In this document: piece by piece, positions 351-62,879 of the stretch
How positions within the stretch are numbered: the first letter of the stretch is position 1
How the letters are laid out: the number at the start of each line of letters is the position of its first letter
Assembly (NCBI GenBank): GCA_944323725.1
Contig: CALUTP010000022.1
Span: 62,001-126,000 of the forward strand
From: Candidatus Gastranaerophilales bacterium
Lineage (GTDB): Bacteria; Cyanobacteriota; Vampirovibrionia; Gastranaerophilales; Gastranaerophilaceae
Length of the DNA stretch: 64,000 nucleotides
Direction: 5' to 3'
Position numbers and translations under genes: made by a program
The notes under the pieces: model-generated
The model's input: only the letters and a program-made list of their open reading frames with translations
Told to the model about the DNA's origin: nothing
The model's database searches: none

Positions 351-1868
351 TTAGCCAAAGATTTTGAATGTAGATTCGACATTCTTTTCAATAACTCGTT
401 GTACTGCATCCATTTCTGTTGAAATTGCATCTTGTTCTGTATCTAATTGTTTTAATCTTAATTCTAAATTCTTGTCTTCTAATTGAGTAATCTCTATTTT
501 ATTATTTATATCTTCTATAGCTTTATCATAAGTTGTTTTATCATATTCGTACTGATTCATTGCATCATTGTATGCATCTTGATCAGTAATAGTTTCAGTT
601 GTTAACGCATAAGTAACTTCATCTTCTGTGCCAGGATTAAGTGTAATATTTATATATCTTCCTGAAGTATCTTGCTCAAGTTTAGCAGTTGTCCCCTTAA
701 TTTCGTTTGTTGTTCTGCTAGTGCCAATTTTATATGCCTCAATATAGGATAGGCTACCGCTTGTCGTATCCTTATATATTGCATTTTCAAGATCATTTAC
801 TTTGTAAAAATAAGGTTCCCAAGCTCCACTTGTGGTGTTTTGAATATATCTTACCATCCAGGCTCCACCGCCAAATTTTTGTGTAAGCATTGTAATATAT
901 TCGTTTTCTTCATTTTCCAATTCATTTAGTTGAGCTGCTGATAGTGTAGACAAATAGGCATCATTACCAGTATATTTTGTTATAAGACCATTTTCATCTC
1001 TTTCTGCCTCTTCTATTTTACCTAATGATCTTAATTTAGTTCCTCCTATATAGTAGATATCAGCTTCATTTCCAAAACTATTAATTAATTTAGTAACTCT
1101 GTTTTTAAGGTAGTCCTTTCTAGCTTGTGGAACATTATTACCTCTTTCTGCTCCATCAAGAATTGGTTTTGTTGCATCAACAGTTCCACCAGATACATCT
1201 TTTAAAAATTCATATAATAAATCAACGATTTCTTGTTGTTCTGGAGTCCCTACTAATTGTGCACTAATTTTATCCATTAAAACTTTGTTGCCATTTGAAC
1301 CTGAGGAAGCGGTAGTAGTCCACCAGCGAGAGTTTGTATAATTTTTATCCATTCCAAATGGAAATACAGTGAGTTTATTTCCATCAGAAGTAGTATAATC
1401 TCCAGCTACTAACATGTGAGTTAATGTGTGAGCAAAGTGTGCTGCATCATAATTTTGTATTGCCGTAGTATAGCAACCTCCATTAGTACCTGTTAAAAAT
1501 TGTTCATATAATTCTCTATTAATTGGGGTTTCAGTTAATCTAGTTACAACGTGAGATGGTGTAGATACGATAGAATTGTCATCTTGATAACTTCTTGTAT
1601 ATGAAATTAAATAATTACCATCACCTTGTGCAATAAGGGAAGTAATACAATTGGAAAGTGCTCCATCAGTAAAGGTATATACTGTTTTTGTATAATCTTC
1701 TACTGAAGGTGGAACTGGAACACTCATTCCTAATAATTGGTTGTAATAATTGGCAGATTGATTAGAAAGGGTAGTTCTTTGCTGATTTATTTGCTGCCCT
1801 TCATATTCAACATTAGTTTTTCTAGCTGTAAGCCCTAAAAATCGAGCTTGCGATGCTGCCATTCCCAT
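351..1868 (-). CDS. MG-family paralogue A: conserved-ends coiled-coil protein, 505 aa, function unknown
   Basis: Unrecognised function. It starts MGMAASQARFLGLTARK and ends in a predicted coiled coil with LDTEQDAISTEMDAV and KNVESTFKIFG. The first 48 residues are identical to those of the 361-aa protein at 16029-17114, and the last ~120 residues are almost identical. The middle (about residues 113-275) carries a ~150-residue segment absent from the paralogue. There is no signal peptide and no membrane segment. Many codons differ synonymously between the two genes while the end sequences hold, so the ends look selected. A Shine-Dalgarno AAAGGGA precedes the ATG at 1868. Conserved helical ends around a variable centre resemble flagellin, hook-associated and needle proteins in layout only; I see no sequence match to them. 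A half-site of the palindrome described at 17198 lies upstream (about 1930-1942). Confidence 0.85.
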   Translation of the reverse strand: MGMAASQARFLGLTARKTNVEYEGQQINQQRTTLSNQSANYYNQLLGMSVPVPPSVEDYTKTVYTFTDGALSNCITSLIAQGDGNYLISYTRSYQDDNSIVSTPSHVVTRLTETPINRELYEQFLTGTNGGCYTTAIQNYDAAHFAHTLTHMLVAGDYTTSDGNKLTVFPFGMDKNYTNSRWWTTTASSGSNGNKVLMDKISAQLVGTPEQQEIVDLLYEFLKDVSGGTVDATKPILDGAERGNNVPQARKDYLKNRVTKLINSFGNEADIYYIGGTKLRSLGKIEEAERDENGLITKYTGNDAYLSTLSAAQLNELENEENEYITMLTQKFGGGAWMVRYIQNTTSGAWEPYFYKVNDLENAIYKDTTSGSLSYIEAYKIGTSRTTNEIKGTTAKLEQDTSGRYINITLNPGTEDEVTYALTTETITDQDAYNDAMNQYEYDKTTYDKAIEDINNKIEITQLEDKNLELRLKQLDTEQDAISTEMDAVQRVIEKNVESTFKIFG

Positions 1869-16028: not shown

Positions 16029-17114
16029 TTAACCGAATGTTTTGAATGTAGATTCAACGTTCTTTTCGATAACTTTTTGAACAGCATCCATTTCTGTTGA
16101 AATAGCATCTTGTTCAGTATCTAACTGTTTCAATCTTAATTCTAAGTTTTTATCTTCAAGCTGAATGATTTCTATCTTATTATTAATATCTTCGATAGCT
16201 TTATCATATGTTGTTTTGTCATACTCGTACTGATTCATTGCATCATTATATGCATCTTGGTCAGTTGTAGTTTGAGTAGTTAATGCATAAGTGATTTCAT
16301 CGTCTGTTCCAGGATTCAAAGTGATGTTAATATATCTTCCAGAAGTATCCTGTTCAAGTTTAGCAGTTGTACCTTTGATTTCATCAGTAACTCTTTCAGA
16401 GCCAGTTGCATAAGCTTGAATAAATGATTGAGAAGCACCAGTTTTGTCACTATAGATAGTAGTATCCTTAGTCAAATCATTAGTTTTGTAGAAGACTGGA
16501 TTCCAAGTGCCACTTGTTGTATCTTGTTTATAGTAAACTTGATAAGCATCATCTGCGCTAGCTTGACCTTTATTGTATTTTTGGTCTAACTTTTCTTTGT
16601 AAGCTTGTTCTTCTTGTAACAATTTTACAAGTTGAGGTTCAGTCAAAGTTGAAAGATATTCATCTTCTTCTGCGAATGCTTTAAATTCTTCAGTAAGTGC
16701 ATCCCCTGTTCCATCAAGTCCTTCTCCAAGTGTTCTAAGTTGTTTTGCACCTACGCTGTAAACATAGTTTCCAGCGTTGCCGCTTCTGGTGATAATTGAA
16801 GAAGTTGATGCAACCACTGAAGTATCATCAGTGTAACTTCTTGTGTAGCTTACCAAGAATTCGCCATCCCCTTGTGCGATTAATGATGTTACTACGTTTT
16901 CTAATGCACCATCTGTAAATGAATAAACAGTTTTTGTATAGTCATCTACTGAAGGTGGTACTGGAACTTCCATACCTAACAACTGGTTATAGTAGTTTGC
17001 AGATTGGTTAGATAGGGTTGTTCTTTGTTGGTTAATTTGTTGACCTTCATATTCAACATTTGTTTTCCTTGCGGTAAGGCCTAAGAACCTTGCCTGTGAT
17101 GCTGCCATTCCCAT
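16029..17114 (-). CDS. MG-family paralogue B: conserved-ends coiled-coil protein, 361 aa, function unknown
   Basis: Shorter sister of the 505-aa protein at 351. Residues 1-48 are identical, residues 49-110 are close (VPVPPSVDDYTKTVYSFTDG), and the C-terminal ~120 residues (GTTAKLEQDTSGRYINITL ... KNVESTFKTFG) differ at only a handful of positions. The middle is a different, shorter Glu/Gln-rich helical segment. No signal peptide, membrane segment or cysteine. The start has a strong Shine-Dalgarno (AAGGAAAGGG, 11-20 bases upstream of ATG). A long 3' stem-loop, a strong terminator and an upstream palindrome suggest a highly expressed, regulated monocistronic gene. Layout recalls flagellin-type export substrates without sequence identity to them. 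Structural or surface role is inference. Confidence 0.88.
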   Translation of the reverse strand: MGMAASQARFLGLTARKTNVEYEGQQINQQRTTLSNQSANYYNQLLGMEVPVPPSVDDYTKTVYSFTDGALENVVTSLIAQGDGEFLVSYTRSYTDDTSVVASTSSIITRSGNAGNYVYSVGAKQLRTLGEGLDGTGDALTEEFKAFAEEDEYLSTLTEPQLVKLLQEEQAYKEKLDQKYNKGQASADDAYQVYYKQDTTSGTWNPVFYKTNDLTKDTTIYSDKTGASQSFIQAYATGSERVTDEIKGTTAKLEQDTSGRYINITLNPGTDDEITYALTTQTTTDQDAYNDAMNQYEYDKTTYDKAIEDINNKIEIIQLEDKNLELRLKQLDTEQDAISTEMDAVQKVIEKNVESTFKTFG

Positions 17115-17197
17115 AGCATATTCCCTTTCCTTTTTTCTTTGCTTGTGATTTATGTATCGGCATGTTGATTTAAAAACTTTAATTTTTGTTTTAATAT

Positions 17198-47039: not shown

Positions 47040-47552
47040 ATGGGTTTCTTAACCGGCGCATTTCTGAAAATGTATACAACACGAATGCGGATTCAGCTCC
47101 AACATCAGCTGACCACAATCACCATGCGTCAAAACCGTATCACTAAACAAATAGGTGATATGGAAAAGAAACTTACCCAAATGAAACAAGCTGCTACTAT
47201 GGGTGTTAGTGCTAGTATGCAAATGCAGAATGCTGAAGCTGCAAGCATATTCCAGCAAGCATCTGCTAGCGGAGATACTAACGCAATGACACAAGCTAAC
47301 GTACAATACCAAAATGCAATGGCTCTAAATGCTATGAATGCTCAAATGTCTAAGAGTATGATCGAGCAGCAATATGAACAAATGAGTGAAGCACAATTAG
47401 AACCATTAAAGAATATGGAAGAACAGCTAGCTATGGAAAAAGCAAACCTCGAGTCAAGAATCAAACTCATCGAAGGTCAAGAACAAGCTTCCAGAGAAAT
47501 GGAAAAATCAAGTCAAAAAGACTTCGTTCCGGAATACACCGGAGGGGGTTAA
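47040..47552 (+). CDS. Coiled-coil MG-family protein, 170 aa, function unknown
   Basis: Starts MGFLTGAFLKMYTTRMR, then a Gln/Met-rich coiled coil (ITMRQNRITKQIGDMEKKL; AMNAQMSKSMIEQQYEQMSE; LEPLKNMEEQLAMEKANLES) and a flexible acidic tail (QKDFVPEYTGGG). Alanine/glutamine/methionine-rich, no cysteine, no signal peptide. The rich Shine-Dalgarno region, a strong terminator at 47572 and optimal-looking codons suggest high expression. Shared MG-hydrophobic start and a common operator link it to the paralogue set at 16029 and 60822. Plausibly a filament- or needle-type subunit or a chaperone for export; inference only. Confidence 0.82.
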   Translation: MGFLTGAFLKMYTTRMRIQLQHQLTTITMRQNRITKQIGDMEKKLTQMKQAATMGVSASMQMQNAEAASIFQQASASGDTNAMTQANVQYQNAMALNAMNAQMSKSMIEQQYEQMSEAQLEPLKNMEEQLAMEKANLESRIKLIEGQEQASREMEKSSQKDFVPEYTGGG

Positions 47553-53141: not shown

Positions 53142-53282
53142 CTAATTTATTCCAGAAGTAGCTAGAAAAGTTTCACGCATGAATTCACAATAACAATCAA
53201 CATCATCTTTAAATTCATCCGCTTTATTAATCAATTCCTTAAGTTCAACAATAATTCTTTCTTTTTTCAATTCTTCATACAT
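53142..53282 (-). CDS. Small acidic ORF, 46 aa
   Basis: Found by hand: MYEELKKERIIVELKELINK, then ADEFKDDVDCYCEFMRETFL and a short tail; stop TAG at 53142-53144. GGAGAG nine bases before the ATG supports translation. Amphipathic helices with a CxC pair; reminiscent in size and charge of Spo0E-like or anti-sigma-like small proteins, but no family match is claimed. It lies just upstream of the CoA-disulfide reductase gene on the same strand. Confidence 0.5.
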   Translation of the reverse strand: MYEELKKERIIVELKELINKADEFKDDVDCYCEFMRETFLATSGIN

Positions 53283-53383
53283 GATACACACTCTCCAATA
53301 AACATAAATTTATTGACGGAAAGCATGGAGTAAAACTTTAAACATTAAAAAAAACTCTTAACAAAGATTAATAATAAAAAACA

Positions 53384-56960: not shown

Positions 56961-57413
56961 ATGGCAAATACAATAACATTAGAAGATTTAAGACCTGCTG
57001 AAGGTTCTACTCATAAATCTAAACGTGTAGGCAGAGGCCGTTCATCTGGTCATGGTAAAACTTCTTGTCGCGGTCACAATGGTGAAGGTCAACGTTCAGG
57101 AAGCGCAGCTAAAAGAGGTTTTGAAGGCGGTCAGATGCCAGCATATAGAAGATTACCTAAATTAAAAGGTTTCCAAATCATTAATAAACTTAACTATGCT
57201 GAAATAACAGTTACTAAATTAGAAAGATTAGGTATGAAAGATGTTTGTCTAGCATGCTTAAAAGAAGCTAAAAAAGTTCATCCAACTTGTGATGGCTTAA
57301 GAATTATTGGTAATGGTGATATTAAAACTGCAGTAAATGTTAAAGCTAACTACGTAACACCGTCAGCTAAAGCTAAAATTGAAGCTGCAGGCGGAAAGGT
57401 TGAGTTAGTATAA
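56961..57413 (+). CDS. rplO: 50S ribosomal protein L15
   Basis: 150 aa. LEDLRPAEGSTHKSKRVGRG, GRSSGHGKTSCRGHNGEGQR, SAAKRGFEGGQMPAYRRLPK and C-terminal PSAKAKIEAAGGKVELV, all family hallmarks. Its stop TAA shares bases with the secY ATG (57413), indicating coupling. Good Shine-Dalgarno AAAGAGG. Confidence 0.96.
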   Translation: MANTITLEDLRPAEGSTHKSKRVGRGRSSGHGKTSCRGHNGEGQRSGSAAKRGFEGGQMPAYRRLPKLKGFQIINKLNYAEITVTKLERLGMKDVCLACLKEAKKVHPTCDGLRIIGNGDIKTAVNVKANYVTPSAKAKIEAAGGKVELV

Positions 57414-58750
57414 TGGCACAAGGAATGAGAATGCCTTCTACCGATGATTTGATGTCAATGTGGCATGCTTCCGGTTTAAAGCAAAAAATCATATTTACTT
57501 TTATAATGATTGCAGCATTCAGATTTGGAGCTCAATTACCTTTATATGGTATAAACAATTCTGTGTTCAGCAACATTGCTCAAGGTAATAACATAATTGG
57601 ATTTTTAGATTTATTTTCAGGCGGTGCACTTGGTAATGTATCTATATTTGCACTAGGTATAGGACCATTCATTACATCTTCAATCATAGTCCAGCTTATT
57701 TCTGTTGTAATTCCTTCATTAGAAAAATTACAAAAAGAAGAAGGTGAAGCAGGCAGAAGAAAATTATCACAGTACACACGTATATTTACTGTGGTTCTTG
57801 CAATATTCCAGTCATTGATATTCATGATGTTTATGCACCACTTACCTGGTGCTATCCAACCAAACGTGAATCATTTAATGTTCTACGTAAGTTCAATTAC
57901 AGTACTTACTGCCGGAGCAATGCTTGTTATGTGGATTTCAGAACTTATAACTGAAAAAGGTATAGGAAATGGGGGTTCTTTAATCATTTTTATAGGTATT
58001 CTGTCAGGGATTCCGGTATATGCTTCTAGAACAGCTCAAATGGTATCTCATAGCACGCAATTACAATTAGGACTTTTAGCACTTCTTGCTATTTTCTTTT
58101 TAACAATGGTATTCATTGTTATAATGCAAGAAGCGGTTAGGAAAGTAATTATTGTTAATCCAAAACGTCAGGTGGGAAATAAAGTTTATGGTGGAATGAA
58201 TTCATATATTCCATTCAAACTTAATCCAGGTGGTGTAATGCCAATAATCTTTGCAGTAGCTATTTTATTGTTTCCATCAACCGTATTAAGCCTTGTGGGA
58301 CAAGCTAATTTTAAATCAGTTGCTGCAAAAGATGCTGTAATGAATCTTGCTCATTGGTTAAGTCCAGATGGCATTGTTTACTATATTATGTATTTCTTAC
58401 TAATTGTTGCATTGACTTTCTTTTATGCATCAATTATGCCAAATATGCAGCCAAAAGACATTGCGACAAACCTTAAGAAATATGGCTCTTCAATTCCAGG
58501 AATTAAGCCGGGTAAACCAACCGCTGATGCATTGGATAAGATATTAACTAAAACAACATTTATCGGAGCTATGGGACTTGGTATCATTGCGCTTGTACCA
58601 TCTTTTGCAAGTTATCTAACTAATATTAAAACTTTGCAAGGTATTGGAGCTACATCATTAATAATCATGGTCGGTGTTGCTCTTGATTTGATAAATCAAG
58701 TAAGAACCCATCTTTTAGCAAGAAACTATGAATCTTTCTTAAAAGAATAA
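57413..58750 (+). CDS. secY: Preprotein translocase subunit SecY
   Basis: 445 aa, ten transmembrane helices. LKQKIIFTFIMIAAFRFGAQ (TM1), GALGNVSIFALGIGPFITSS (plug region), LITEKGIGNGGSLIIFIGIL, QEAVRKVIIVNPKRQVGNK, SYIPFKLNPGGVMPIIFAVA (cytoplasmic loop and TM7) and C-terminal LDLINQVRTHLLARNYESFL. Core channel for Sec-dependent export and membrane insertion, working with the SRP RNA at 27871. Last gene of this ribosomal cluster; adk, map and infA do not follow. Confidence 0.97.
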   Translation: MAQGMRMPSTDDLMSMWHASGLKQKIIFTFIMIAAFRFGAQLPLYGINNSVFSNIAQGNNIIGFLDLFSGGALGNVSIFALGIGPFITSSIIVQLISVVIPSLEKLQKEEGEAGRRKLSQYTRIFTVVLAIFQSLIFMMFMHHLPGAIQPNVNHLMFYVSSITVLTAGAMLVMWISELITEKGIGNGGSLIIFIGILSGIPVYASRTAQMVSHSTQLQLGLLALLAIFFLTMVFIVIMQEAVRKVIIVNPKRQVGNKVYGGMNSYIPFKLNPGGVMPIIFAVAILLFPSTVLSLVGQANFKSVAAKDAVMNLAHWLSPDGIVYYIMYFLLIVALTFFYASIMPNMQPKDIATNLKKYGSSIPGIKPGKPTADALDKILTKTTFIGAMGLGIIALVPSFASYLTNIKTLQGIGATSLIIMVGVALDLINQVRTHLLARNYESFLKE

Positions 58751-58776
58751 CCATAAATTTATTAATAAACGACATT

Positions 58777-58808
58777 AAAAAGCGGTCTTATAAATAAGAT
58801 CGCTTTTT
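58777..58808 (+). terminator. Intrinsic terminator after secY
   Basis: AAAAAGCGGTCTTA/TAAGATCGCTTTTT (one G-T pair), loop TAAA, followed by a T-run. Confidence 0.9.
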
Positions 58809-58885
58809 AACTATTATTGAATTTAATAGATTTTTATTTAACTTTAAAATTGTAATCCTTTTGGATAAAAATTTATAAACAAAAA

Positions 58886-58998
58886 TTACATATTTATGGC
58901 AATGAATTAGAAGAATTAAGGGATTAGTATTATTATGTAAATCCTCAACTCTTCTGATTGCTCAGTATTTGCCCCGCCGGTTTTGGACGGGGCTTTTC
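58886..58998 (+). ncRNA. Candidate small RNA or leader with two hairpins
   Basis: This stretch between secY and the PilZ gene (58751-59070, 320 bp) contains no ORF. A promoter-like pair, TTGTAA (58850) and TATAAA (58874), 18 bases apart, would start RNA near 58886. A long imperfect hairpin follows (AGAAGA 58909 with TCTTCT 58950; GGGATT 58920 with AATCCT 58940) and then a G+C-rich terminator hairpin GCCCCG...CGGGGC (58971-58993) with TTTTCTTT. The layout matches a ~110-nt independently terminated RNA; alternatively it is an attenuator for the PilZ gene. Confidence 0.4.
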
Positions 58999-59070
58999 TT
59001 TGTTAAATGTTTGCAATATTACATTAAATATAATATAATTGAACTATAAATATATTAGAAAGGGTTTAAA

Positions 59071-59661
59071 ATGAGAGAATTACTGGAAAAAGGTCAAAGA
59101 GTTATAATGGTTCCTGCAGATTTTAAATTTGCTAACAAAGGTACAATTACGGATGTAACCCCTCAAGGTTTCAGTTTAGAATTAGACTATAATCCCGATG
59201 GAATTTTAAAAAGTAATTATTGTGAATTTTACTTAGAAACAAAAAATGGAACTCTTTACTTTGATTCCTATGCCAAATCAATTGAAGGTAATACTCTTTT
59301 AATTGCAAACCCTGCAAAACATAAATTTTTACAAAGAAGACGTTTTACTCGTATAAAATTTATAAAAGATATTGATTTATTTACTGATAGCGTAAATCAC
59401 AAAATTTCTACTCTTGATATTTCTGCAGGCGGTATGAAATTTAGGACTGCCGAAAATGTAAATATTGAGTCTGAATATAAAGTTACCTTACCTCTTTCAG
59501 AAGAAATGCATGTAACCTGCAAATACATTCCAATAAGAATTGAAAAAGGTGATGACAATAAATACACACATTCTGGACGTTTTGCATTTTTTGATAATAA
59601 AGACAAAATGACATTGATTCAGTATTGCGCAAAAAGAAGCATAGAAATAAAAAATAAATAA
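59071..59661 (+). CDS. PilZ domain c-di-GMP receptor (YcgR-like)
   Basis: 196 aa. N-terminal flagellar-brake-type domain (LEKGQRVIMVPADFKFANKG) followed by a PilZ domain: QRRRFTRIKFIKDIDLF carries the RxxxR c-di-GMP motif and STLDISAGGMKF the DxSxGG motif. YcgR-type proteins sense cyclic di-GMP and alter motility or envelope functions. No GGDEF or EAL protein is in the window. AAAGGG precedes the ATG. Separated by 2 bp from the following gene, so in one transcript with it. Confidence 0.9.
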   Translation: MRELLEKGQRVIMVPADFKFANKGTITDVTPQGFSLELDYNPDGILKSNYCEFYLETKNGTLYFDSYAKSIEGNTLLIANPAKHKFLQRRRFTRIKFIKDIDLFTDSVNHKISTLDISAGGMKFRTAENVNIESEYKVTLPLSEEMHVTCKYIPIRIEKGDDNKYTHSGRFAFFDNKDKMTLIQYCAKRSIEIKNK

Positions 59662-59663
59662 CC

Positions 59664-60704
59664 ATGAGTTTAATAAATTTATTAAGAAAAACCTCACGAA
59701 ATAAGCTATTCACAACTCCATCACACGCCCAAAAATTTTTTATATTTCATAAGTTGAGGAATCTTTACAAATTAGATATTTCAGAAACAGAAACTCATAA
59801 TCCTCAAGAGGCACTTTTAAAAGCTCAATATAGAGCTTCAAAAATTTATGGGGTAAAATCTACATCTTTTTTATTAAATGGCTCTACCAGCGGTATAATA
59901 GCTTCAGTATTGGCATGTGTAAATCCTAGTGATAAAGTTCTTTTATGGAGAAATGCCCATCCTTGTCATGCAAATGCGGTAAAATTAGCTGGTGCTACCC
60001 CTATATATTATGAACTTGATATAGACAAAGAATTTGGAGTCCCGCTAGAAACAAAACCTGAAGTTATCGAAAGTTATCTAATAAATAACAAAATTAAGGC
60101 TGTCATAATAACATCGCCATCTTATGAAGGAATTGTTTCTGAGATAGAATTAATTAAAACAATATGTAATAAATATGACGCATATTTAATAGTAGATGAA
60201 GCTCATGGAGCATTATATCCGTTTTCAGAAAATCTTCCAAAAAGTGCAGTACAAATTGCAGACTTTACAGTTCAATCTTTGCATAAAACAGCTGGAGGGC
60301 TCAATTCCACAGCATTACTTCACTGCAATTGCGATATAGATGTATCTAAGGCTTTGAGTATTATAAATACGACGTCTCCATCATATCCATTGCTTGCATC
60401 AATTGAAGCTAATATCAATTATATTAACTCTAAAAAAGGACGGGGGGAAATTGAAAAGATTATTTCTCAAATTAAGACTTTAAAGCTAAACTGCAATAAT
60501 TGTAAATTTTATGGAGATGATATTACAAAAATTCTAGTTAAACATAAAAACTATAGTGGATATGACTTGTCTAAAATATTATTTGAAAAATATAATATTG
60601 AGGATGAAAAAACAAATAAAAAATCAACAATGCTTTTATGTGGAATTGGAACTTCAATAAAAAAAATTAATCAGTTATTTTTTGCACTTAACAACATTAA
60701 ATAA
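59664..60704 (+). CDS. Orn/Lys/Arg decarboxylase major-domain PLP protein, shortened
   Basis: 346 aa. PLP fold: RASKIYGVKSTSFLLNGSTS, IIASVLACVNPSDKVLLWRN, AVIITSPSYEGIVSEIE, YLIVDEAHGALYPF (Asp binding the PLP nitrogen), and FTVQSLHKTAGGLNSTALLH with the Schiff-base Lys in HKT. That corresponds to the major domain of biodegradative arginine/lysine decarboxylases; the C-terminal domain of ~100+ residues is short here (family ~480). Either a compact decarboxylase (polyamine or lysine product) or a related aminotransferase-type enzyme. The start follows the PilZ stop by 2 bp. Confidence 0.82.
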   Translation: MSLINLLRKTSRNKLFTTPSHAQKFFIFHKLRNLYKLDISETETHNPQEALLKAQYRASKIYGVKSTSFLLNGSTSGIIASVLACVNPSDKVLLWRNAHPCHANAVKLAGATPIYYELDIDKEFGVPLETKPEVIESYLINNKIKAVIITSPSYEGIVSEIELIKTICNKYDAYLIVDEAHGALYPFSENLPKSAVQIADFTVQSLHKTAGGLNSTALLHCNCDIDVSKALSIINTTSPSYPLLASIEANINYINSKKGRGEIEKIISQIKTLKLNCNNCKFYGDDITKILVKHKNYSGYDLSKILFEKYNIEDEKTNKKSTMLLCGIGTSIKKINQLFFALNNIK

Positions 60705-60771
60705 TTGTTAAAAATTGTAAAACTTAAGTGATACATTTTAAAGATTTAACCCCAAATAGCCGTATTCCATA

Positions 60772-60821: not shown

Positions 60822-62879
60822 ATGGGATTGGCAGCATCACAAGCTAGATTATTATCAATCACATCTCGTATGGCTGACAACGAGTTGAGATCTCAGATGA
60901 TAAATAATGCTAAAATGCGCCTTACTGCAGAAAGTTCTCAAGTCAGTGAGGAGTACGTTGATGCCTTAAATAGAACCCAGCTTATGATGAAGAATTATAA
61001 CACTGCCGGAGAGTCACAATATCAGACATTAACATTTAATAATTTAACAGCTTATAGTGCCTACAATAATCAGTATGGAATTAAAAATAAAGGTGGAGAA
61101 CTTCTAGTTTCAGAATCAGATGCAGCAAAATTTGAAGAAGCCTTTAAAGAAGCTAAATTAGATGAATCAATTCTTGAAGGTGATACCGAAGGACTTAATG
61201 CAAAAGCCTTAGAAGAGTTTTTAAAATCATATGGGTTGGAAAAATCTACAACTTACTTTGAAAATCAGGATGTATTCACAATTGATCCAAATATTCAAAA
61301 AATGTTTGAAGGCGATATGATTTATAATACAGATGGAACCAGAGTATCTGGAATCCATTACGGATATGAATTATCTAAAACATCAACTGAATATGGTATA
61401 TATCTTGAATTATTAAATGATTATACCAAAACAAGCGATGCTTACACTAATGCGACAATAAAAGAAATGCAAGATACTGTATTTAACACAACAAGTGGAG
61501 GGCAAACCTATAAAGAATGGTATAATAAAATGGCCCAGTTTGATGCTGTTTTAAATATAGTAAGTGATGAAGATGGCAATGAACATATAGACACTCCAGC
61601 TGATGCAGTAAACCAAGCAACACAGCTTAAAAATGCAATGCAAGAAGTCTACAATGCAATAAAAAGTCATTTAAAAAAATCCGAAGAAGGTGGAGATGGA
61701 ACATTTGCAACTGCAATGGAAGAATACCTCTCTATGCCAGGTATAGGCTTAACTCAGTATGATGAAATTGGTGTAGCACAAAATCGTGTTCCACTTGGTA
61801 CTGTCGTACTAACTCACCCTGTAACAGGAGAGCCTTGTAAGTGGATAGTATATGATGAATCACTTCTAGAAAGTCTTGATCAAGAATCATTAGACTCAAA
61901 TGGTTTACCTCCTCTAGACACAGTTATTACAGGAGATTACTTAGATGGAACCTATACAGAAGTAATTTCATCAACTGTAACTGACGTAGATTATGTAGAA
62001 TCAGTAATCGCAATGTATGAATACTTCCAAACAAATGTTATGTCTGCACTAAAAAGAGAAGACTTCTCTGCTGGTACAGAAGCACAACAAGCAAAAAGTG
62101 AATACTACGCCGCTGCTAAAAAACTATCAATGTTTATATTCGGACAAGATGTTGGCTCAGATTTTTATGACAAACTTGATGATATGGAATGGTGTGCTGG
62201 CAAACAAGTCTGGGATGAAACAACAGAGATGTGGGGTACCCTATTCCCAACTACAGCACTTGATCCTAGTGAGGGCGGGGTAGTTGTTACCGATGAATCC
62301 CAATGGGTAGATGTACCTTTGCAAATAAAGAATCCTGATGGCACAGTTACAACAATAAATACAAAATATCAACCAAACTTCCAAGCAATTTTAGACGTAT
62401 ATTTATGCGATAAAATGATGGAAGAATATGGAGTACCAAAATATACCTGGATTGATGTTAATAATCCTAATGAAAATGCAGATGCAAAAGCTCAATGGTA
62501 CACAAATTTATTTGAAAGAATGCTCGAAGGTGGATATAAAGCTATTGAAAACGGCTTAGCATCAAGCTCTGAATGGCTTCAATTTGCATTTGAAAGTGGC
62601 TTAGTATCTATGGAACAGGTAAATGACGACAATAATTGGATTTCGACAATGTATACAAACTGTAGCGATATAACAGAGTCTTCAATTGAAATTGACATTA
62701 CAAAAGCTGAAGCTGAATATAACAAAGCTATGAAGAAAATTGAAGTTAAAGATAAACGCTACGATTTAGAATTAAAAAATATAGATACTGAACACCAATC
62801 ACTACAAACCGAATATGATTCTATAAAATCGGTCATAGATAAAAATGTTGAACGAAACTTTAAGTATTTCAATGCATAA
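60822..62879 (+). CDS. MG-family paralogue C: conserved-ends coiled-coil protein, 685 aa, function unknown
   Basis: Distant, larger member of the family. It starts MGLAASQARLLSITSRM (A/B: MGMAASQARFLGLTARK) and ends IEVKDKRYDLELKNIDTEHQ then SLQTEYDSIKSVIDKNVERNFKYF, matching the A/B tail (LELRLKQLDTEQDAIST, VIEKNVESTFK). The ~550-residue centre is acidic, low in cysteine, and unlike A or B apart from mid-protein PVTGEPCKWIVYDES; it has no clear domain. AAAGGAAAAC precedes the ATG. No signal peptide. Architecture suggests a filament, hook-like or tail-like protein exported by a signal-independent route; no such exporter lies in the window. Confidence 0.85.
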   Translation: MGLAASQARLLSITSRMADNELRSQMINNAKMRLTAESSQVSEEYVDALNRTQLMMKNYNTAGESQYQTLTFNNLTAYSAYNNQYGIKNKGGELLVSESDAAKFEEAFKEAKLDESILEGDTEGLNAKALEEFLKSYGLEKSTTYFENQDVFTIDPNIQKMFEGDMIYNTDGTRVSGIHYGYELSKTSTEYGIYLELLNDYTKTSDAYTNATIKEMQDTVFNTTSGGQTYKEWYNKMAQFDAVLNIVSDEDGNEHIDTPADAVNQATQLKNAMQEVYNAIKSHLKKSEEGGDGTFATAMEEYLSMPGIGLTQYDEIGVAQNRVPLGTVVLTHPVTGEPCKWIVYDESLLESLDQESLDSNGLPPLDTVITGDYLDGTYTEVISSTVTDVDYVESVIAMYEYFQTNVMSALKREDFSAGTEAQQAKSEYYAAAKKLSMFIFGQDVGSDFYDKLDDMEWCAGKQVWDETTEMWGTLFPTTALDPSEGGVVVTDESQWVDVPLQIKNPDGTVTTINTKYQPNFQAILDVYLCDKMMEEYGVPKYTWIDVNNPNENADAKAQWYTNLFERMLEGGYKAIENGLASSSEWLQFAFESGLVSMEQVNDDNNWISTMYTNCSDITESSIEIDITKAEAEYNKAMKKIEVKDKRYDLELKNIDTEHQSLQTEYDSIKSVIDKNVERNFKYFNA

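What the first reader, a model, noticed from the sequence alone, without database searches (positions are those of the whole stretch)
60822..62879. Third, divergent member keeps only the two ends
Paralogue C (685 aa) retains MGxAASQARxL at the start and a LD/IDTE...VI.KNVE..FK.F tail although its 550-residue centre is unrelated to A or B. Conservation limited to the ends over such divergence implies that the ends do something specific: assembly, export or partner binding.
Basis: partly seen in the sequence, partly recalled or inferred. Interest (0 to 1): 0.7.

Follow-up and report, generated by a model that had tools for sequence, protein, structure and literature searches.

The report
Flagellin-style proteins for a flagellum-less exporter
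The gene is one of at least 13 in a gut bacterium's genome that share paired helical ends around a changeable middle and a flagellar-type promoter; the genome keeps a flagellum-type protein export machine but has no flagellin, so these proteins are probably what that machine now exports.

Summary
C's ends match models built only from A/B-type ends (N E=4e-8, C E=1e-15; no other window ORF better than 0.1; far above 5000 shuffles), so this is not coiled-coil composition. C is one of at least 13 paralogues in its genome. Against C-like relatives the conserved ends are about residues 1-147 and 520-684; only the middle varies. Minimal members of 109-125 aa are the two ends alone, modelled as one helical hairpin (pLDDT 93); N-C covariation fits antiparallel pairing. 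A, B and C each carry a sigma28-like promoter (TAAAGWTT-N13-YCGW): 10 of the genome's 28 matches sit 26-60 bp before family genes. The genome encodes a flagellar-type type III exporter (FliE/F/H/I/O/P/Q/R, FlhA/B, rod-like proteins, a FliA-like sigma factor) but no detectable flagellin. In 194 genomes of the class the family never occurs without that exporter's ATPase, and occurs in 75 genomes without flagellin. Best explanation: late, flagellin-like substrates of a flagellin-less exporter, with helical ends for export and assembly and a variable middle for display. Export and polymerisation are inferred, not shown.

The parts
60822..62879 (+). C: 685-aa family member (the finding)
60739..60763 (+). 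sigma28-like promoter of C, TAAAGATT-N13-CCGT, 58 bp before the ATG
60822..60971 (+). N-terminal helix, residues 1-50 (MGLAASQARLLSIT...), conserved in the whole family
60972..61262 (+). rest of the N-terminal conserved region of the C-like subfamily (residues 51-147)
61263..62378 (+). variable middle, residues 148-519; predicted mostly folded, with a low-confidence stretch at 308-343; absent in the 318-aa relative L090
62379..62687 (+). C-terminal conserved region before the last helix (residues 520-622; WYTNLF...EWLQFA motif)
62688..62873 (+). C-terminal helix, residues 623-684 (IDTEHQSLQTEYDSIKSVIDKNVERNFKYF)
351..1868 (-). A: family member, 505 aa
1904..1928 (-). sigma28-like promoter of A
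16029..17114 (-). B: family member, 361 aa, next to smc
17157..17181 (-). sigma28-like promoter of B
53316..53340 (-). fourth sigma28-like promoter match in the window, upstream of a 49-aa ORF (about 53142-53291, -)
59071..59661 (+). PilZ-domain gene; conserved neighbour of C orthologues
59664..60704 (+). PLP-dependent Orn/Lys/Arg-decarboxylase-like gene; conserved neighbour of C orthologues

Best explanation
C belongs to a multigene family with flagellin-like architecture. A helix at the very N-terminus and a helix at the very C-terminus pair into an antiparallel hairpin and carry a variable middle. The genes are preceded by sigma28-type promoters, as late flagellar genes are. The products are most likely late substrates of a flagellar-type type III export machine that the organism keeps although it has no flagellin. 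The hairpin is the export and assembly part; the middle is shown on the cell surface or released. Shown by computation: the family, the hairpin model, the promoter motifs, the export genes, the missing flagellin, the co-occurrence. Inferred: export through that machine, use of the FliA-like sigma factor, and whether the subunits polymerise.
For: Ends homologous beyond composition. 109-125-aa members consisting only of the ends; AF2 hairpin H3-45/H53-108, pLDDT 93; C model with helices 2-50 and 623-684. Covariation between N and C columns peaks at i+j=102-104, close to the hairpin register. Promoters: 4 window matches against 0.09 expected; 28 in the genome against 10 for the reversed pattern, 10 of the 28 at family genes; all members 28/91 strict against 13/1331 control genes, spacing clustered at 40-49 bp. 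The motif is one base longer in the spacer than the E. coli sigma28 consensus TAAAGTTT-n11-GCCGATAA (PMC2859248). A FliA/WhiG-type sigma gene is adjacent to flhB. Export genes in G000: FliP, FlhB (32), FliF (33), FliH, FlhA, FliMN (37), FliO/Q/R (38), FliE (64), rod and FliK/FliJ-like (56, 84), FliI (78). No flagellin. Family in 116 of 194 genomes, none of them lacking the FliI-type ATPase; 75 lack flagellin. In L132 an A-type and a C-like member lie a few kb upstream of fliE-fliF.
Against: No direct evidence of export. 25 genomes (mostly families f5-f7) have the exporter ATPase but no detected family member. A family member lies near the export operon in only 5 of 20 sampled genera, about 3 being expected by chance. 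About half of all members show no recognisable promoter, and G000's C13 member has none. No similarity to flagellin or any Pfam family, and no significant fold match. Co-occurrence follows phylogeny, so genomes are not independent observations.
Confidence: 0.72

Rival explanations
1. The proteins leave through the same exporter but do not polymerise: they are secreted effectors, adhesins or enzymes. The conserved ends are only an export and chaperone-binding module. (This overlaps with the best explanation on export and differs on assembly.)
For: The middles are large and diverse (members from 109 to 838 aa) and C's middle is predicted as folded domains. Several unrelated ORFs share the same promoter type, as a mixed set of secreted products would.
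Against: Both ends are conserved and pair with each other, as in axial proteins; 109-aa members have no cargo at all. Type III effectors typically carry only an N-terminal signal (general knowledge).
Confidence: 0.35
2. The proteins are co-regulated with the exporter but are not exported: cytoplasmic chaperones, stalks or scaffolds comparable to FliJ.
For: Helical hairpins of this size are typical of FliJ/CdsO-like parts (6wa9_N among weak fold matches). The small homologue S lies in the core cluster.
Against: A separate FliJ-like gene exists (L200:2537-3028, weak match). A family of 13 or more with hypervariable middles does not look like a machine part.
Confidence: 0.12
3. Substrates of another system (for example a WXG100/LXG type VII-like system) that share only regulation with the flagellar genes.
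For: EsxA/CFP10 and LXG partner chains appear among the weak hairpin matches.
Against: The co-occurrence is with the flagellar-type exporter. The presence of EssC or other exporters was not tested.
Confidence: 0.06
4. Chance or composition: coiled-coil tails that look alike.
For: The tails are rich in K, E, L and Q.
Against: Shuffle and cross-subfamily HMM tests; 91 distinct members carry both ends.
Confidence: 0.01

Closest known systems
Bacterial flagellin (PF00669/PF00700)
   Same: Conserved helical N- and C-terminal regions around a hypervariable middle (PMC7018530); sigma28-type promoter; multiple copies; genome with a flagellar-type exporter.
   Different: No sequence similarity; no flagellin gene in this genome; ends begin MGxAASQAR and finish DTExxxxxTE...KNxE; minimal members of 109 aa; flagellated relatives have both families.
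Type III needle, inner-rod and filament subunits (PrgI/PrgJ/EspA type)
   Same: Short helical hairpins built from both termini; some have inserted domains (general knowledge).
   Different: No sequence or significant fold match; FliP, FlhA and FlhB of the machine score higher against flagellar than injectisome models.
Flagellar export genes retained in the non-flagellated Lysobacter enzymogenes OH11
   Same: Non-flagellated bacterium with flagellar export genes, shown there to be functional (PMC7277350).
   Different: There the genes affect type IV pilus twitching; no dedicated multigene substrate family is described in the abstract.
Flagellar genes of Gastranaerophilales/Melainabacteria (Di Rienzi 2013, Soo 2014)
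   Same: Same lineage; Soo et al. [quoted passage not shown]
   Different: They read the subset as loss of the flagellum. Here it looks like a second exporter, distinct from the flagellar one where both occur, kept after flagellin loss and paired with this family.

Membership tests
Flagellin | PF00669/PF00700 sequence domains | tested here: not met
   No flagellin match for C at E<=10, nor for A, B or the minimal member at E<=1; PF00669 finds nothing in G000
Flagellin | Paired N- and C-terminal helices with variable middle | tested here: met
   (models and covariation, no solved structure)
Flagellin | Late-gene sigma28 promoter | tested here: met
   (sequence match only; spacer one base longer than in E. 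coli)
Flagellin | Exported and polymerises into a filament | not testable with these tools
   needs an experiment
Flagellar-type type III export apparatus (the machine in G000) | FliP/Q/R, FlhA, FlhB | tested here: met
Flagellar-type type III export apparatus (the machine in G000) | MS ring FliF, FliH/FliI, FliE and rod proteins | tested here: met
Motile flagellum (whole organelle in G000) | Flagellin | tested here: not met
Motile flagellum (whole organelle in G000) | FliG rotor and MotA/MotB stator | tested here: inconclusive
   The gene at the fliG position has no FliG match in Pfam; MotA/B and FliG elsewhere were not searched
Injectisome needle/translocon proteins | Sequence or fold match | tested here: not met
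   (no fold match at E<=0.001)

The most novel reading that the evidence does not exclude
The non-photosynthetic sister class of cyanobacteria carries a second flagellum-derived machine, separate from its flagellum. It has outlived flagellin loss in the gut lineages and builds a variable surface filament, or secretes a variable protein set, from a new protein family that is analogous to flagellin but unrelated to it in sequence.
Probability: 0.4. Interest if true: 0.88.

Novelty: new variant of a known kind. Interest (0 to 1): 0.76.

Why it matters
Flagellar genes in gut Gastranaerophilales without flagellin have been read as remnants. Here they come with a dedicated, co-regulated, fast-varying protein family present in all 97 sampled genomes of the window's taxonomic family. 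That suggests a working secretion or filament system in common animal-gut bacteria, and gives a concrete list of candidate surface or secreted proteins to look for. It would also be a natural case of a flagellar exporter being reused with a new subunit.

Tried and rejected
Pfam, NCBIfam, PHROGs and PDB sequence searches of A, B and C gave nothing significant. Foldseek of the hairpin and of C against PDB gave no match at E<=0.001; the hairpin matches are generic. The idea that A, B and others are recent gene-conversion copies was tested: A and B ends are only 77-82% identical in DNA, so recent conversion is not supported; the identical 127 bp at ends of contigs C1, C7 and C47 explains assembly breaks. 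The window gene 47040-47552 looked like a relative of the small homologue S, but profile comparison gave 4% probability. No paper describing a type III system in this lineage was found. A Pfam call with a wrong coordinate range failed and was repeated correctly.

Full report
What was checked. The ORF 60822-62879 encodes 685 aa. Models built from A/B-type ends alone pick out C's two ends among all window ORFs (N E=3.8e-8, C E=1e-15; next ORF 0.1 or worse), and 5000 shuffles of each end reach at most 14.9 and 10.5 bits against 33.3 and 56.1.

Family size and anatomy. The window's genome G000 (1.91 Mb, 48 contigs, 99% complete) holds at least 13 members, counting contig-end fragments conservatively. 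Two subfamilies are clear: A/B-like (MGMAASQARFLGLTARK) and C-like (MGLAASQARLLSITSR). In 97 non-redundant members collected, including G000's own, length runs from 109 to 838 aa. Compared with C-like relatives, C is conserved at residues 1-147 and about 520-684, with a variable middle; a 318-aa relative (L090) joins the two directly. Members of 109-125 aa are the ends only. In genomes of another family of the class (f4), the 109-aa gene sits beside smc-scpA-scpB, as B does in the window, and is followed by the same two genes (K, R) that follow member C13 in G000.

Structure. The 109-aa member is modelled as one helical hairpin (3-45, 53-108; pLDDT 93). C is modelled with helices 2-50 and 623-684 at its ends and a mostly confident middle apart from 308-343 (mean pLDDT 85, pTM 0.65). 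Mean-field covariation over 96 sequences (about 43 effective) gives its highest antidiagonals at i+j=102 and 104 in the numbering of the 109-aa member, next to the register of the model; I count 14 of the top 30 N-C pairs in the band 96-108, which holds about a fifth of all pairs. This is moderate support, from a shallow alignment, and the best parallel diagonal scores only slightly lower. No solved structure matches significantly.

Promoters. Upstream of nearly all G000 members lies TAAAG(T/A)TT-N12-N(C/T)CG(A/T), close to the E. coli sigma28 consensus TAAAGTTT-n11-GCCGATAA (PMC2859248; G000 sites). The pattern occurs 4 times in the window (0.09 expected), at A, B, C and one small ORF; in G000 it occurs 28 times against 10 for the reversed control, and 10 of the 28 lie 26-60 bp before a family ATG. 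Across all members with enough upstream DNA the strict pattern is found in 28 of 91 against 13 of 1331 control genes, the relaxed one in 46 of 91 against 21 of 1331, with distance to the ATG clustered at 40-49 bp. A FliA/WhiG-type sigma gene lies next to flhB (E=6.7e-22, below that model's curated cut-off).

The machine. G000 encodes FliP, FlhB, FliF with its flagellar C-terminal domain, FliH, FlhA and a FliMN-type protein, FliO, FliQ, FliR, FliE, FlgB/FlgC/FlgF/G-like rod proteins, a FlgE/F/G-like protein, and FliK-like and FliJ-like proteins below their curated cut-offs, and a FliI-type ATPase. It has no flagellin. At the fliG position is a protein without a significant Pfam match. The operon fliE-fliF-X-fliH-flhA is present in all 20 genera sampled from the window's family, except that fliE was not detected in one. 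Genomes with flagellin mostly have two FliP genes, a longer one and this shorter type, so this exporter is probably distinct from the flagellar one; the split into two types rests on score and length, not on a tree.

Distribution. Of 194 genomes in the class, 116 have the family, 137 FliP, 141 the FliI-type ATPase, 50 flagellin. By my count from those tables every family-positive genome has the ATPase, 41 have flagellin and 75 do not; the listed genomes of families f3 and f8, which have no exporter ATPase, have no family member. 25 genomes have the ATPase but no detected family member, mostly f5-f7. These counts are not phylogenetically independent. Named relatives are mostly Gastranaerophilales/Melainabacteria metagenome assemblies.

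Linkage. In L132 an A-type and a C-like member lie upstream of fliE-fliF. In G000 member C13 ends about 7.5 kb upstream of fliF. In 20 sampled genera 5 have a member within the 20-kb stretch; since a genome has a dozen or more members, about 3 are expected by chance, so only the single-copy K-R-S cluster (4 of 20, plus G000 and L132) counts as linkage, and those genera may be close relatives. Four flagellar-type fliF loci have none.

Interpretation. Ends that pair, a variable middle, sigma28-type promoters, an exporter without flagellin and strict co-occurrence fit late substrates of that exporter, working like flagellin. By sequence they are not flagellins. Whether they polymerise, coat the surface or are released is open.

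Limits. No experiment; promoter calls are sequence matches; the AF2 models and the covariation test use overlapping alignments; MotA/B, FliG elsewhere and other secretion systems were not searched.

Noticed in passing
L028:5243-10285 (G000:C16) and IMG/VR contigs L231-L234, L236, L237: A family member of the C16 subtype sits directly downstream of a portal-like (about 550 aa), terminase-like (429 aa) and 76-aa gene in G000 and in several viral contigs; a conserved prophage remnant or phage cargo. The portal and terminase labels are by eye.
   Followed up: partly
L202-L229 (sigma28-like pattern matches in G000): 18 further matches, several 23-60 bp before unrelated ORFs (L205, L206, L207, L210, L213, L222, L227, and small ORFs L219, L224): candidate further substrates or chaperones.
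   Followed up: no
window 57413-60704: secY, PilZ and PLP-enzyme genes upstream of C are in the same order in at least 11 relatives; a PilZ (c-di-GMP-type) gene next to a sigma28-type gene is suggestive.
   Followed up: partly
L156:5030-6121 (gene X): 363-aa protein at the fliG position of the export operon, no significant Pfam match, conserved in all 20 sampled genera.
   Followed up: no
L029:9822-11536 (K, R, S): Three genes following the core family member in several relatives; S (107-112 aa) is a distant homologue of the family's ends, K (MxYKNDxxLVI) and R have no significant Pfam match.
   Followed up: partly
window 47040-47552: 170-aa helical protein starting MGFLTGAFLKMY, similar in style to S but not confirmed as homologous.
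   Followed up: partly
G000 contigs C1, C7, C47: Contigs break inside the N-terminal coding region because at least two members share an identical 127-bp start.
   Followed up: yes
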